The notes under the pieces were generated by a model. The model had not been told where the DNA came from. It made no database searches and saw only the letters and a program-made list of their open reading frames with translations. The translations under genes were made by a program, and so were the position numbers. From Desulfobacula sp. (GTDB lineage Bacteria; Desulfobacterota; Desulfobacteria; Desulfobacterales; Desulfobacteraceae), in contig VMSR01000095.1 of assembly GCA_013792075.1 (NCBI GenBank), positions 1 to 64,000 of the forward strand: DNA of 64,000 bases, written 5' to 3'. Of the stretch, positions 46,321-55,402 are shown piece by piece (position 1 is the first letter of the stretch; each line of letters begins with the position of its first letter).

Positions 46321-46395
46321 AAACAAACACAAAATATTTTCAATCAATTAAATTCGCAGGCGCCTGAGAATGAATCTTGTGAATTGTCAGAATGA

Positions 46396-46417
46396 AACGC
46401 CGAGGTTGGCGTTTTTT
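46396..46417 (+). terminator. Terminator-like hairpin before DUF932 gene
   Basis: AACGCC-gaggtt-GGCGTT followed by four more T. The AAGGAGG ribosome site for the gene at 46449 comes 17 bases later. Confidence 0.75.
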
Positions 46418-46448
46418 AAGAAACAAACCCATGAAGGAGGATAAAACC

Positions 46449-47375
46449 ATGCAGCATGAAACCACCCTTGAAAAAATTTATGATCAAGTGGATGCAATGT
46501 CCGCTAATTGTATTGATCAAAATGTCAATGTACCCGAAATAGAATTTGACAGCCTTGATTTGATGAGGATCGCTGGAGAATCCCATACGGTAAGACCTGT
46601 GGCCCAGAGATCCATTTCAAACAGATTGGGAATCCCCTACAATTATTTGAAAAAATGCCCCCAGGATATCCAGGCGGATAATTTGAATTACTGGATCAAA
46701 CATGAAAAGAATACCCAGCTGTTTTTTAGATTCGATGGGGATGATGTAAGAGCGGTATTCACTCAAAAATATGTTCCAGTGGACAATTTTGAGATTTTTG
46801 AACGACTTGATTCTTTGGGATATAAACCTGAAACAATCGTCCAGTGCTCTCTTGACCCTGAATTCATGAGCTTGAGCATACCTGACGGGCCCAGATCTTT
46901 TGATATCAATGGGGATAAGTTTACCCCGGGAATCTCTATTTCTAATTCTGAAGTGGGATTGGCCAGTTTGAGCATATCTGCGTTTGTCTTGCGCCTGATC
47001 TGTACCAATGGACTTATATCCAAGTCCGATGTTTCTACATCATACCGCCATGTATCCACCAAGATTCTGGAAGAATTTCCCAATGTCCTGGAGAAAGTAT
47101 CTGCTGAGCTTGGCAACAAAAGGGATCTGTTCAAAATATCCATGGATTCTGCTGTGAATAATCCTGATTCATCCATGGCAAGTTTCAACAGGCAATTTCA
47201 ATTAAACAAAGTGGAGCAGGAAGCTGTTGAATGGGGATGGGCCCATGATGTCGGGAATACCATGTTCCATGTAATCCAGGCTTATACCAAAGGTTCCCAG
47301 TACAAGGATCTATCTGCTGAGTCCAGTTTCAAACTTCAGAGGACCGGTGGGAATATTCTGGCAATGGTCAATTAA
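46449..47375 (+). CDS. DUF932 phage/plasmid-like protein
   Basis: A 308-residue protein of the DUF932 family, common in plasmids and phages. Features are AQRSISNRLGIPYNYLKKCP, FRFDGDDVRAVFTQKYVPVDN, LSISAFVLRLICTNGLI and WGWAHDVGNTMFHVIQAYT. The ATG at 46449 has AAGGAGG; the frame can be read further upstream but without such a site. Its biochemical role is not settled; it usually lies in replication or recombination blocks, as here. Confidence 0.85.
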   Translation: MQHETTLEKIYDQVDAMSANCIDQNVNVPEIEFDSLDLMRIAGESHTVRPVAQRSISNRLGIPYNYLKKCPQDIQADNLNYWIKHEKNTQLFFRFDGDDVRAVFTQKYVPVDNFEIFERLDSLGYKPETIVQCSLDPEFMSLSIPDGPRSFDINGDKFTPGISISNSEVGLASLSISAFVLRLICTNGLISKSDVSTSYRHVSTKILEEFPNVLEKVSAELGNKRDLFKISMDSAVNNPDSSMASFNRQFQLNKVEQEAVEWGWAHDVGNTMFHVIQAYTKGSQYKDLSAESSFKLQRTGGNILAMVN

Positions 47376-47401
47376 TCATTTGTTTTAAAGGAGAATTATT
47401 T

Positions 47402-47644
47402 ATGGGATTGATACATTGTATGGAATTGGATTTCAGTCAAATTCCTGAAATCTCAAATGGTATAGTAAAAAAAGATTCTTTCTTTGATGAAGTGCCAACA
47501 TTGAATCAGAAAAATCTGGAAAAATGGGCAGAATCAAAATTCGAGTTTAAAATCAAAATTGAACATGAATGGTATCTCGGTTCATTTTACAATGATGATT
47601 CTCGAATCAATGAAGTTTCTTTATCATTTTCAAAATTTCAATAA
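47402..47644 (+). CDS. Hypothetical protein
   Basis: An 80-residue acidic protein, no domain recognised, ATG with AAGGAG. Bases just after its stop (47646-47663) repeat the last bases of the DUF932 gene (GGCAATGGTCAATTAA), which shows that a gene end was copied or that this gene was inserted there. Function unknown. Confidence 0.5.
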   Translation: MGLIHCMELDFSQIPEISNGIVKKDSFFDEVPTLNQKNLEKWAESKFEFKIKIEHEWYLGSFYNDDSRINEVSLSFSKFQ

Positions 47645-47684
47645 ATGGCAATGGTCAATTAAACAAACCGCTGTTCACAATTTA

Positions 47685-47722
47685 ATAAACCCCTCTTTGA
47701 ATGATCATTGAGGGGTTTTCAT
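47685..47722 (+). terminator. Leader hairpin before the 47743 gene
   Basis: AACCCCTC / GAGGGGTT perfect stem with a 14-base loop and TTC. The surrounding leader, from CAATTAAACAAAC to GGATTTAAAAGTATGGA, is repeated at 48236-48302 with part of the hairpin missing. Confidence 0.7.
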
Positions 47723-47742
47723 TTCTATGAGGATTTAAAAGT

Positions 47743-48219
47743 ATGGATACTGAACAATTTGTGATCACGAAAGAAACCTTAAAAAGATATTCCCAAAATT
47801 TATTATTTAATCGTATGCACGGTCTTACTGACAAAGACGTTTTAATTGCAAACCGGATGCATGATTTAATTTTAAATTCCAGGGATAAATCAAGACCGAC
47901 TCCTGGTGATATTATTGTCTGTTGTTCGGACCAAATCAGCTATGAATATGGTCACTTAAATACAGACATAAAAACCGAATACTGCTCTATTTGTACCCAA
48001 GCATATACACCCTTTGTCTTTGATGATCTTGATATGCCTTATTTTTCAACCTCCGGGGGTTACTGGATATCTGAAACAGATCCCAAAATGTTTGAATACA
48101 TAGGTGAAAGGAAAAAGTTGTTTTGCACATGGGGTCATGATGGTGCATGCGCTGGAGGAGCGGTTTATTTCGAAGTCCTGGTCAATGCGTGGAAACTTTA
48201 TCGAGAAGATATCTATTAA
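47743..48219 (+). CDS. Hypothetical protein
   Basis: A 158-residue soluble protein with several cysteines (VCC, YCSICTQAYTPFVF, GACAGGAV) that could bind a metal. The YTPFVF and SGGYWIS parts are typical of an uncharacterised element family, possibly DUF4121. ATG has GAGGA. Function unknown. Confidence 0.5.
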   Translation: MDTEQFVITKETLKRYSQNLLFNRMHGLTDKDVLIANRMHDLILNSRDKSRPTPGDIIVCCSDQISYEYGHLNTDIKTEYCSICTQAYTPFVFDDLDMPYFSTSGGYWISETDPKMFEYIGERKKLFCTWGHDGACAGGAVYFEVLVNAWKLYREDIY

Positions 48220-48296
48220 TGAAATCGCTTACGTCAATTAAACAAACTGCAGTTCTCAATTTAATAAAACCCTCATTTGAATAAGGATTTAAAAGT

Positions 48297-48785
48297 ATGG
48301 ACAAAGAACAATTCTGGAATGATCTCAAAACAGGCACATTCGCTTCAATGGTCAAGGAATCTTCCAAAGGTAAGCGACTGCTTTCATCAAAAGAAGTTTT
48401 TAATGTGATGAAACCCATCTTTGCTCAAGAGGATGATATCGAAACCATGTACTGCATCTTCATGAACCCCAAAAACAGGATCATTGCCATTGAGAAGATG
48501 TTTGAGGGCACCATAAATCATGCAATCGTTTATCCTCGGGAAATCGCCAAACGGGTGATCTTGCTAAAATCTACAGGTGTTATCCTGGTTCACAATCATC
48601 CTTCAGGAGATACCGAACCCTCAATGGAAGATAACAAAATCACCATGAAGGTAGGCATCTCTCTTGGGAGCATAGACGTTGAACTACACGACCATATAAT
48701 CATTGGAGACAGTTATCATTCCATGGCCGACTCCGGAATTATCCAAACAGTTAAAAATCGGATGAGAGAGCTTGTTTCTGTGTAG
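48297..48785 (+). CDS. RadC-like JAB domain protein
   Basis: A 162-residue protein with the JAB/MPN metal motif HNHPSGDTEPSMED (HxH-x(n)-D), with an upstream glutamate in the IAIEKMFEGT part. It is the RadC-type domain common on plasmids and islands; the N-terminal HhH part of chromosomal RadC is absent. The exact role is unknown, often with DNA processing genes. ATG with AAGGA. Confidence 0.85.
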   Translation: MDKEQFWNDLKTGTFASMVKESSKGKRLLSSKEVFNVMKPIFAQEDDIETMYCIFMNPKNRIIAIEKMFEGTINHAIVYPREIAKRVILLKSTGVILVHNHPSGDTEPSMEDNKITMKVGISLGSIDVELHDHIIIGDSYHSMADSGIIQTVKNRMRELVSV

Positions 48786-49551: not shown

Positions 49552-49902
49552 ATGGATATTTGTGGCGACAAATGTATAAATGAAAAAAAGGTTCTGGAGA
49601 CTTTAAAGACTATTCCGCCAGTTGAAAGCATCAACCAGATGGTGGATATATTCAAAGCGTTAAGCGATCCAACACGACTAAAAATTGTTCTTGCACTATT
49701 GAAACAGGAACATTGTGTTTGTGATATCGCAGTTCTTTGTAACCTGAGTGATTCCGCTATTTCGCATCAACTCAGGATACTTAGAACAATGAAAATTTTA
49801 AAAAATCGCAGAGAAGGTAAAATAATCTACTACTCTATTGATGATGACCATGTTGTCTCATTGATCAAAATGAGCCTGGATCATATCACTCATGCTAAAT
49901 AA
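49552..49902 (+). CDS. ArsR/SmtB-family regulator
   Basis: A 116-residue winged-helix repressor. FKALSDPTRLKIVLALL and SDSAISHQLRILRTMKIL form the DNA-binding domain, EGKIIYYSIDDDHV is the wing and the C-terminal helix closes the dimer. The metal motif HCVCDIAVLCNL in helix 3 has the CVC set of the ArsR/CadC group, and CGDKC near the N-terminus supplies extra cysteines as in CadC. It should bind the repeat just upstream and release it with a thiophilic or soft metal. It overlaps the permease reading frame. Confidence 0.93.
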   Translation: MDICGDKCINEKKVLETLKTIPPVESINQMVDIFKALSDPTRLKIVLALLKQEHCVCDIAVLCNLSDSAISHQLRILRTMKILKNRREGKIIYYSIDDDHVVSLIKMSLDHITHAK

Positions 49903-49915
49903 GGAAAAAATTATT

Positions 49916-50992
49916 ATGACAATCGTTTATGAAATATTAAAAGAATCTTGGTATCTATATCTTGATGTTGCAATATATATGCTGTTCGGCTTTTTTGTCG
50001 CGGGACTACTCTACGTTTTTTTTAAGGCAGATAAAATTAAACAATACCTTGGAACCGGTAAAATCAAGCCAGTAATTCTATCGGCATTGTTTGGGATACC
50101 GATCCCTCTTTGTTCTTGTGGTGTTGTTCCTGTGGCTACGAGTCTTAAAAAACAAGGAGCTAATAGCGGCGCTGCCTTATCGTTTATGATCGCCACCCCA
50201 GAATCAGGAGTGGATTCCATCGCAGTCTCCTGGGCTATGTTAGATCCCATTTTGACTGTAATTCGTCCAGTTGCTGCTTTTATTACTGCAGTATCAACAG
50301 GGATCGTTCAAAATTACTTTGGCACAGAGGATGCACCCATTGTCAAGACACAGGTTAAAGAAGCAGGCGGTTGAGGCTGCACACAAAACAGTTGTGCAGT
50401 AGCACAACCCAAAAAAGAATCCTTGCTCCACAGACTAATCGACGGTATTAAATACGCTTATGGTGAGCTGCTGACAGATATTGCCAAACCTTTTTTGGTC
50501 GGTATTTTCATTGCAGGGATTATAACATTTTATTTTCCGGAAGATCTGACTGTGTGGGCCAATGATCACAGATTTTTATCTATGATAGTGATGCTGATCG
50601 CCGGAATACCCATGTATGTCTGTGCAACTTCTTCTACACCTATTGCAGCAGCCTTGATATTAAAAGGGTTGAACCCGGGAGCTGCCCTGGTCTTTTTACT
50701 TGCAGGACCAGCCACCAATGCAGCAACCATCAATCTCGTTAAAAACATATTTAACACTCGGGCACTTTTTATTTATTTGTCAATGATTTCTGCCACTTCC
50801 CTCTTAATGGGTTTTTTAGTGGACATTGTGTATGACCTGATGGGAATACAAGCCAGTGCAATCGTTGGTCAAGCTTCGGAAATTTTTCCAGAAAGCGTGC
50901 AACTTGTTGCAGCGGTAATTCTTACCGGGCTGATCGTATTTAATTTGATAACTAACTATCGGCATCAGACAGAACATGCTCATTCACATTAA
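49916..50992 (+). CDS. Two-half permease with in-frame TGA, predicted selenoprotein
   Basis: The frame runs from 49916 to 50992 (358 codons plus stop) and is broken only by TGA at 50372-50374 (residue 153). Both halves belong to the DUF318/ArsP_1 permease group: residues about 15-150 hold PIPLCSCGVVPVATSL and TPESGVDSIAVSW, the second half holds YVCATSSTPIAAALILKG and GPATNAATINLVKN. Reading TGA as selenocysteine gives the loop GGUGCTQNSCAVAQ between the halves. A SECIS-like hairpin follows (50391-50408). The protein should export a metal or metalloid across the inner membrane, under the ArsR regulator. The start at 49916 has AAGGA; 49892 is possible. Confidence 0.8.
50391..50408 (+). promoter_or_regulatory. 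Candidate bacterial SECIS element
   Basis: GTTGTGC-AGTA-GCACAAC, a 7-bp perfect stem whose loop holds GU and begins 24 bases after the TGA. Bacterial SECIS hairpins carry a GU in a small loop about 16-37 bases after the UGA, so it fits. A competing stem CTGCACA/TGTGCAG (50377-50399) exists. Confidence 0.65.
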
Positions 50993-51045: not shown

Positions 51046-51702
51046 TTGAAATCAAGGAGAGCCTTAAATTGGTATAATCTGTTTTCAAAAGTTTATACAT
51101 TCACAAATGATTATCCTTATACAAAAATAAGAAAAAAAGCCATCGATGAATTGGAGCTAAAAAAAGGAGATGTGGTTCTTGATCTCTTCTGCGGGACAGG
51201 AGTCAATTTTAAGGAGATCTGTTCCCAAATAGGACAAAATGGAATAATTGTTGGAATTGATGGTTCTTCAGGTATGCTTTCAAAAGCAAGGGAAACTATT
51301 TCTGTAATTGAAAATCCTTCATCGGTAAGGCTTATCGAAAAAGATCTGCGCATGGTTGGATGTGATTTTTTTTTGAAAACGATACCAACTGAAACTGTAC
51401 CGAAAGTTTTGATAACCTTAGGTCCTGGAGGCATGCCGGGTTGGGAAACTTTCTGGAAGAATCTGTTTTCAGCAGTACCTTCTGGTACACGGTTTGTTAC
51501 CATGGACGTGTTTTGTAAAAAAGGATCTCTATCAGGAGCCATCATAAATCTTATAGGGGCAGGGAGCTGGAAGATTGATGTCAGTTCCCACACGCCCTGG
51601 AAATACCTGGCTAAAAATTGTGACAATTATCGAGAATCAATTTTTCGTGCTTTTAAATTGTTAGACTGTGACCTGGTTTTAGCTTCCGGTCGGAAAAGAT
51701 GA
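51046..51702 (+). CDS. SAM-dependent methyltransferase
   Basis: A 218-residue class I methyltransferase of the UbiE/Methyltransf_11 kind: motif I VVLDLFCGTGVNFKEI, motif II region GIDGSSGMLSKARE, and a later LITLGPGGMPGWE. Start is a TTG at 51046, with GGGAAAA upstream. It lies 53 bases after the permease and probably shares its operon; together with an ArsR regulator this suggests methylation of a metalloid or of a small thiol, but the trivalent-arsenic cysteines of ArsM are not seen. Confidence 0.7.
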   Translation: MKSRRALNWYNLFSKVYTFTNDYPYTKIRKKAIDELELKKGDVVLDLFCGTGVNFKEICSQIGQNGIIVGIDGSSGMLSKARETISVIENPSSVRLIEKDLRMVGCDFFLKTIPTETVPKVLITLGPGGMPGWETFWKNLFSAVPSGTRFVTMDVFCKKGSLSGAIINLIGAGSWKIDVSSHTPWKYLAKNCDNYRESIFRAFKLLDCDLVLASGRKR

Positions 51703-52224: not shown

Positions 52225-52632
52225 ATGAAAAAAATTATTACTACAATATCAATCGTTCTGATAGTTGGTTTTCTTGCAGCCAGTGCGTATGCCTGGGGGT
52301 GCGGCGGGAGGTACGGTGGTGGAATGCATGGAAACGGGAATTACAATCAGAGCGGCTACAACAACGGTGCCTATCAGTCCTTTGAGAATGATACCCAGCC
52401 TCTGAGGTCCTCCATTTCAGCAGACAGGGCAGAGTTGAATGCACTGATGGCAAACACCAACCCTGACGCTAAAAGAGCCAGGGCATTGTCTGAGCAGATC
52501 AGCAAATCCGAAAATGAACTCAGGATAAAAGCCCAGCAGTATAATGTCTCTGGTATGGGCGGCATGGGATACGGTCAGGGCTGGGGTTGTGGTATCACAG
52601 ACCACGACCATGACTTTGCCGGATGCTGGTAA
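52225..52632 (+). CDS. ZraP-like periplasmic metal-binding protein
   Basis: A 135-residue exported protein with signal peptide (cleavage after AYA). The mature part is rich in G, Y, N and M, with a helical core (SISADRAELNALMANTNPDAKRARALSEQISKSE split by the family's hinge) typical of the ZraP/CpxP-type heavy-metal resistance fold, and a metal-binding tail GWGCGITDHDHDFAGCW. It probably binds zinc or copper in the periplasm and damps a two-component sensor. Driven by the sigma-54 promoter. ATG with AAAGGGGAAG. Confidence 0.8.
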   Translation: MKKIITTISIVLIVGFLAASAYAWGCGGRYGGGMHGNGNYNQSGYNNGAYQSFENDTQPLRSSISADRAELNALMANTNPDAKRARALSEQISKSENELRIKAQQYNVSGMGGMGYGQGWGCGITDHDHDFAGCW

Positions 52633-53473: not shown

Positions 53474-55402
53474 ATGACCCACGACACAGCAAATTCTTCA
53501 AGCACCACTTATCTGTTGGAAGAGGAAATGATTATCAACAATAAGTGGGAGATACAGAACTTCATTGCTAAAGGCGGCAAAGGAGAGGTTTATTTGGCTA
53601 AGCAGCTAAATTTAGATCGCCAGGTAGCATTGAAAATCATGTCCGAGGAATTCATTAAAAGTCTTGATGGTAATGAAGAAGAAATCTCCTCAGAAACCAT
53701 GCGCTTTCATCGGGAAGTGCAGGTGATGGCCAGAATGCAGCACCCGAACATTCTCCAGGTTTTTGATTTTGACCAGCTTGAAATAAATGGCATGAAAATG
53801 GATTATATTGTTATGGAATATATTCCAGGCCTGACTTTGCGCCAAAAAATGCCGGAAAAAGGCTTTGGACATGACGAAAACAAAGTGAGAACCTGGCTTA
53901 AAAAATACTTTTTCCCAATCCTTGATGGTATGAAAGCCGTGCATGATAAAGGGGTGGTGCATCGGGATATGAAGCCTGAGAATGTTCTTGTTGATGATGA
54001 ACTTCCCAAGATTATGGATTTTGGAATTGCAGGGGGGTATCACTTAAACAATGTGACCCAGGACCATCATATGTTGGGGACAATAACCTATATGCCGGAA
54101 GAACAATTTGTCGACCTGGCCCTGACAGACGTACGCGTTGACGTATATGCCCTTGGTAAAATACTTTATGAGGTTGTTGAAGGCAAAATGAAAAAAGGGC
54201 GGGATAAACCCTTTCACAGTGCTGCTTTGGATAACCCGCAAACCATTTTTTTTAAAACCCTTGATACAATAATACAACAAGCCACAGCCAAAAATCGAAA
54301 TCAGAGAACGCCTTCTGTTAAAACTCTCCATACTGCATTGGAAGAGCTTGTTATGGATTCTGATGGGAAGGGGAAATCACCAACAGGCCGAGGCCATAAA
54401 TATTGGAAAAAGTTATTTGTCATAAGTACTGCTGTTATAGTCGTTATTGCTGGTGTATGGATAACGCACCATAATTCAGGAAAAATAAAACCATCGCTTG
54501 AAGGAAATCATATCATAAGCCAACAAGAGGTAACAAATCCTCTAAACTTGTCGGAATTTAACTTTAAAACCCCCCAGCCAACATCATCTCCTGGCACCGA
54601 TAAAATGGACAACCTTCCTGCCGAGTTTTTAGCCAGCGATGGCATGATGATGATATTGTTAAAAGGAGCAGATGTCTCCATGTCCATTGATGATCCCATG
54701 GTATCGGAAGGAAAACAGGTCAAAAAAACCGTATCAGTAAAAACATTGTATATGGATCAGACCAAAATCACGAACCATTTATATGTCCAGTTCCTTAATG
54801 AGGTTGATGGGATAGAAGTGAAAGAAAAATCTGTTTTGCGGAACGGGCAATTGTTACTCCTGCTTGGAGAGGTAAAGGAAGGCTATGAACCTATTACATA
54901 CAAAGACGGGATTTTTAGAGTTAAATCTGATGCTGTTGCAAAACCAGTCGTACGGGTTACACCTGTCGGAGCAATTGCATATGCACGGTTTTACGGAAGG
55001 TCTCTGCCCTTGATGGCGCAGTGGTGGCTTGCCGTTCAAGCCGGTCATGACCCAACTTCACTGATAGATACGTCTCCTCCCTCCCAACCTAAAAAAAGAG
55101 AGTGGAATGGAATGTGGATGATGCAGGGCCAAAACCCCGAACCTGAGCCCTTAAGCGATCCTCCGGAATTTGGCATTCAATCAGTTATCGAAACCACAGT
55201 CAACAATGCCGGCATTCAGGGACTTGAGCAAAATGTGAATGAATGGACGATGACTATCTCTCCAGATGGCACTCCAAAATTTCATGTTCACGGCGGCGTC
55301 GGTGAATTGGATCACAATGAAGCTTATCTTGAACGCCAACATTGGGAAGCCTTTTCCAGCGTCGGTTTTAGAACCGTTTTAAATCTATCTGGAGAAAAAT
55401 AA
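53474..55402 (+). CDS. Ser/Thr protein kinase fused to FGE-sulfatase-like domain
   Basis: A 642-residue, one-pass membrane protein. Residues about 28-290 are a Hanks-type kinase: glycine loop [14 protein letters not shown], invariant lysine in [16 protein letters not shown] (catalytic loop) and MDFGIAG (DFG). A membrane helix follows ([17 protein letters not shown], about 315-331). The outer part has the FGE/SUMF1 layout: [58 protein letters not shown] and VGFRTVLN. The external domain probably senses or binds rather than oxidises cysteine, as no active-site cysteine pair is seen. It is joined to a PP2C gene one base downstream. Confidence 0.85.

What the first reader, a model, noticed from the sequence alone, without database searches (positions are those of the whole stretch)
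49916..50992. Permease continuous only if UGA encodes selenocysteine
Two frames, each half of an ArsP_1/DUF318-type permease, are in the same reading phase and separated by one TGA (50372-50374). The loop read through is GG-U-GCTQNSC, cysteine-rich as expected between the halves. A 7-bp hairpin with a GU-containing loop AGTA starts 17 bases after the TGA, with its loop 24 bases after it. A metal/metalloid permease selenoprotein behind an ArsR repressor would be a rare kind of transporter selenoprotein.
Basis: partly seen in the sequence, partly recalled or inferred. Interest (0 to 1): 0.87.

Follow-up and report, generated by a model that had tools for sequence, protein, structure and literature searches.

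The report
Selenocysteine-containing metal efflux transporter gene
The gene is very probably a real selenoprotein: a membrane pump, likely for exporting copper, zinc or similar metals, whose in-frame UGA 'stop' is read as selenocysteine; members of this transporter family are already annotated as selenoproteins, so it is a well-supported new member of a known kind.

Summary
The frame 49916-50992 is one 358-residue transporter interrupted only by TGA 50372-50374. It belongs to the SO_0444 family of Cu/Zn efflux transporters (NF033936, 383 bits, cut-off 300), a branch of Pfam ArsP_1. UGA is read as selenocysteine with high probability. The genome has selA, selB, tRNA-Sec and a selD that is itself a selenoprotein (GUAAK). 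A second copy in the same genome has TGA at the same codon. Of 68 related loci read, 42 have TGA at this column; close orthologs have TGT or TGC (Cys), none TAA or TAG. The hairpin after the TGA keeps its core pairs and its apical G in TGA forms, shows compensatory changes, and is mostly lost in Cys forms. An ArsR gene lies upstream in three quarters of the loci. The family is already listed as a GenBank-annotated selenoprotein family (motif UxC, one Sec) in a 2026 review (PMC13188914), so this is a new member of a known kind. Not listed there: a double-TGA form in four species, with a second Sec in the conserved PLCSCG motif. Transport substrate and the chemical role of Sec are inferred, not shown.

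The parts
49552..49902 (+). ArsR/SmtB-type metal-responsive repressor gene, just upstream of the transporter
   Evidence: NF033788 96.6 bits (cut-off 55); PF01022; a homolog lies upstream in 52 of 68 related loci
49916..50992 (+). Selenoprotein gene: SO_0444 family Cu/Zn efflux transporter, 358 residues with Sec at residue 153
50372..50374 (+). In-frame TGA codon read as selenocysteine (residue 153, motif U-G-C)
   Evidence: same column is TGA in 42 of 68 loci read, TGT/TGC in 23, never TAA or TAG
50391..50408 (+). Bacterial SECIS-type hairpin: stem GTTGTGC/GCACAAC, loop AGTA
   Evidence: four core pairs kept in 26 of 26 distinct TGA sequences of the same register, apical G invariant, compensatory changes
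50111..50119 (+). Codons for Cys66-Ser-Cys68 of the conserved PLCSCG motif; Cys66 is a second TGA in four related species

Best explanation
The gene encodes a full-length membrane transporter of the SO_0444 Cu/Zn efflux family in which UGA 50372-50374 is decoded as selenocysteine by SelB, tRNA-Sec and a hairpin that starts 17 bases downstream. An ArsR-type repressor encoded just upstream probably releases the operon when thiophilic metal enters the cell. The Sec-Gly-Cys motif sits in a flexible loop between the two halves. It most likely binds a soft metal ion (Cu, Zn, Cd or similar) and passes it to the conserved Cys-Ser-Cys-Gly site in the membrane domain for export. Sec decoding is strongly supported by comparison. 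The metal efflux role is inferred from the Shewanella family member. The role of the Sec as metal ligand is inference only (I would put it at about one half); a redox-switch role is not excluded.
For: Sec machinery in the same genome: selB 347 bits over cut-off, tRNA-Sec 76.9 bits over cut-off, selA 613.6 bits, selD 369 bits with its own TGA in GUAAK. Second copy in the genome with TGA at the same codon. 42 loci with TGA at the aligned column; five close orthologs (L026, L028, L048, L053, L060) with TGT or TGC there; position 153 is invariant Cys/Sec in a 24-sequence alignment. SECIS-type hairpin: 6 of 7 pairs show double changes, none of 500 shuffles reaches the covariation score, and slid registers are far worse; hairpins score higher in TGA than in Cys forms. 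No restart codon of conserved position after the TGA. Family function: SO_0444 needed for growth in ZnSO4 or CuCl2 (PMC3219624); a family member induced by Cd and Cu in Nitratiruptor (PMC10092412).
Against: No protein-level proof. The window's own RNA folds best into a competing hairpin. Outer SECIS pairs are not kept in all relatives. The mid-loop of the structure model is disordered (pLDDT under 50 for 141-166) and gives no geometry for Sec. The substrate of the Sec form is unknown; the fitness and expression studies concern other family members. L060 has Cys and still keeps the hairpin.
Confidence: 0.88

Rival explanations
1. A nonsense mutation or sequencing error: the gene is a recent pseudogene or the base at 50372-50374 is miscalled.
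For: The genome is a draft in 308 contigs.
Against: The same TGA recurs at the same codon in a second copy and in some 40 loci of other genomes, always TGA and never TAA or TAG; the second half is under strong purifying selection.
Confidence: 0.01
2. Two separate subunits, the second restarted after the TGA.
For: ArsP_1 permeases consist of two halves, and the window has a TTG 17 codons after the TGA.
Against: Start codons after the TGA are not conserved in place; some relatives have none for about 70 codons, well inside the second half. Homologs without TGA are mostly single open frames across the join. Cys takes the place of TGA in close orthologs.
Confidence: 0.03
3. UGA is read through as another residue, such as Trp, or by general stop suppression.
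For: A frame open through TGA would look the same in DNA.
Against: The alternative residue in relatives is Cys; the genome has complete Sec machinery and a Sec-type SelD; a SECIS-type hairpin covaries.
Confidence: 0.02
4. It is a Sec transporter, but it exports another substrate (arsenic, mercury or a metal-thiol complex), or the Sec-Gly-Cys is a redox switch rather than a metal ligand.
For: ArsR-family regulator upstream; a weaker match to efflux transporter SaoE (NF040736, below cut-off); the review links Sec transporters to Hg and As resistance (PMC13188914).
Against: The model that passes its cut-off is the Cu/Zn family.
Confidence: 0.35

Closest known systems
SO_0444 family Cu/Zn efflux transporter (NF033936), Sec-containing members annotated in GenBank (WP_014809615.1, listed in PMC13188914)
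   Same: Same family over its cut-off, one Sec, motif UxC (here U-G-C)
   Different: Nothing essential; here it comes with an ArsR gene, a Sec-containing paralog, and comparative SECIS evidence
SO_0444 of Shewanella oneidensis, required for growth in ZnSO4 or CuCl2 (PMC3219624)
   Same: Same transporter family by the NCBIfam model
   Different: That gene's regulator is a ZntR-like protein, here ArsR; I did not align SO_0444 itself
ArsP_1 (PF03773) permeases
   Same: Same Pfam family, two halves
   Different: The subfamily model that passes its cut-off is Cu/Zn efflux; the genome's other ArsP_1 protein, on C211, has no TGA and only about 25% identity
SaoE efflux transporter (NF040736) of the Sao selenoprotein system
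   Same: Related permease
   Different: 171.8 bits, below the cut-off of 325

Membership tests
SO_0444 family Cu/Zn efflux transporter (NF033936) | Score over curated cut-off across the full length | tested here: met
   382.8 bits, cut-off 300, positions 2-348 of 351
SO_0444 family Cu/Zn efflux transporter (NF033936) | Efflux of Cu or Zn | not testable with these tools
   only inferred from PMC3219624
Bacterial selenoprotein | In-frame UGA aligned with Cys in homologs | tested here: met
Bacterial selenoprotein | selA, selB, selC, selD in the genome | tested here: met
Bacterial selenoprotein | SECIS hairpin just downstream with conserved apical loop G | tested here: met
   stem at +17, loop at +24, invariant apical G, covariation above all 500 shuffles
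Bacterial selenoprotein | Selenium in the protein | not testable with these tools
   needs 75Se labelling or mass spectrometry
SaoE efflux transporter (NF040736) | Score over curated cut-off | tested here: not met
   171.8 bits, cut-off 325

The most novel reading that the evidence does not exclude
Within this transporter family, four species of three genera carry a second in-frame TGA at the first Cys of the conserved PLCSCG motif of the membrane domain (PLUSCG), followed by its own hairpin with a GGTC loop. If real, these are double-selenocysteine transporters with Sec probably in the transport path itself, and Sec would be a working metal ligand both in the loop and in the membrane site.
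Probability: 0.6. Interest if true: 0.5.

Novelty: new member of a known kind. Interest (0 to 1): 0.33.

Why it matters
Gene callers that stop at UGA split this transporter in two, so metal-resistance genes of sulfate reducers are miscounted. The family also offers natural Sec/Cys swaps, with hairpin loss, in closely similar transporters, so the benefit of Sec in a transporter could be tested directly.

Tried and rejected
Rfam found no family in the window at gathering score. No solved structure matches the family by sequence; the AlphaFold model (mean pLDDT 71) gave no significant fold match (best E 0.07), so nothing is drawn from it beyond a disordered loop at 141-166. I suspected that loci without a detectable upstream ArsR hid an ArsR gene with its own TGA: none was found with TGA read through. 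Two-subunit, pseudogene and general readthrough explanations were considered and rejected (see rivals). A scan for other TGA-joined frames in the window (at least 80 codons on each side) gave five more candidates; by eye most look like antisense or low-complexity frames, and they were not tested further. The genome paper of Desulfobacterium autotrophicum reports at least 31 selenoproteins, but the passages read do not name this transporter (PMC2702500).

Full report
Observation. The window has a frame from ATG 49916 to the stop at 50990-50992 that is interrupted only by TGA 50372-50374. Read through, it gives 358 residues that match Pfam ArsP_1 in one stretch and the NCBIfam model NF033936, SO_0444 family Cu/Zn efflux transporter, at 382.8 bits against a cut-off of 300. 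Folded alone, the window's RNA prefers a different hairpin, so the case for this one is comparative.

Sec machinery. The genome (5.3 Mb, 308 contigs, 98.9% complete) has selB, tRNA-Sec, selA and selD, each over its curated cut-off. The selD gene itself has one in-frame TGA, at the GUAAK motif, the usual Sec/Cys position of SelD by general knowledge. So the organism almost certainly inserts Sec.

Recurrence. The genome holds a second copy of the transporter, on contig C240, 72% identical, with TGA at the same codon in the same GG-U-GC context, also behind an ArsR gene. Of 86 genomes of the same taxonomic family, 80 have a relative at E up to 0.001, and many full-length relatives have exactly one TGA. 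I read and aligned 68 loci: 42 have TGA at this column (two of them in the window's own genome), 23 have TGT or TGC, two have a glycine codon in a longer loop where the alignment is uncertain, one (L086) is a broken copy left out, and none has TAA or TAG. Five close orthologs (69-80% identical to the window) have Cys: L026, L028, L048, L053, L060. Named records show that the relatives are Desulfobacula, Desulfotignum, Desulfobacter and other Desulfobacteraceae or Desulfobacterales. A sample of 389 genomes of the class shows TGA-bearing relatives in other families too; I did not align those.

Hairpin. In 26 distinct TGA sequences that share one register, the four core pairs form in every sequence, the second loop base is always G, and the loop is mostly AGTT. 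Six of seven pairs show changes on both sides; the covariation score 0.244 is above all 500 shuffles (mean 0.136) and above all slid registers (at most 0.115). Another group (the window's paralog included) has CACCTGC-GGT/GGC-GCAGGTG at about +12. In Cys forms the hairpin score is much lower (mean 6.9 against 15.3, p = 1.7e-7, not corrected for relatedness), and four of the five close Cys orthologs have lost core pairs or the loop G; L060 keeps them.

Against restart or decay. Both halves have dN of about 0.08-0.17 with dS near or beyond saturation against eight relatives. Start codons after the TGA have no conserved place, and in L042, L052 and L067 none occurs for 69 codons or more.

Function. 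The family is named after Shewanella SO_0444, required for growth in ZnSO4 or CuCl2 stress (PMC3219624); a relative in Nitratiruptor is among the genes most induced under Cd and Cu (PMC10092412). An ArsR/SmtB regulator similar to the window's lies upstream in 52 of the 68 loci. Cys66, Cys68 and Cys236 are invariant in a 24-sequence alignment, as is Cys/Sec153 (TGA written as C there). Sec153 lies in a loop that the structure model leaves disordered. I infer that the loop's Sec-Gly-Cys binds the metal and hands it to the membrane site; this is not shown.

Known or new. A 2026 review lists 'SO_0444 family Cu/Zn efflux transporter, NF033936, UxC, 1 Sec, WP_014809615.1' as GenBank-annotated (PMC13188914). 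So the window's gene is a new member of a known selenoprotein family. Not in that table entry: relatives in four species (L059, L061, L063, L066; three genera) have a second TGA at Cys66, giving PLUSCG, followed at about +15 by ACCTGT-GGTC-ACAGGT or CCCTGT-GGTC-ACAGGG, with a compensatory difference at the outer pair. A Cys form (L064) shows a similar hairpin at that place, so this second SECIS is less certain. Two more distant relatives (L068, L069) have their TGA four residues before the window's column, as PSUGGGCAC, followed by GCCTGC-GGT-GCAGGC.

Noticed in passing
L059, L061, L063, L066 (transporter residue 66): Second in-frame TGA at the first Cys of the PLCSCG motif, with its own downstream hairpin: candidate double-Sec transporters.
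   Followed up: partly
L068, L069: TGA displaced by four residues in the same loop (PSUGGGCAC), with a strong GGT-loop hairpin; the Sec position within the loop is not fixed across the family.
   Followed up: partly
L122 (G000:C238:23605-24528): selD of the window's genome is itself a selenoprotein gene (GUAAK).
   Followed up: yes
51046-51702: Methyltransferase-domain gene directly downstream of the transporter; weak matches to UbiE and arsenite methyltransferase models, below their cut-offs. The same gene was not found next to the transporter in the relatives read.
   Followed up: partly
52225-52632: Small protein with a heavy-metal resistance domain (PF13801, ZraP-like) about 1.2 kb downstream of the transporter.
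   Followed up: no
46392-48785: DUF932-like and RadC-like genes just upstream, of a kind often seen on mobile elements.
   Followed up: no
53474-55402: Protein kinase domain fused to a formylglycine-generating-enzyme-like domain.
   Followed up: no
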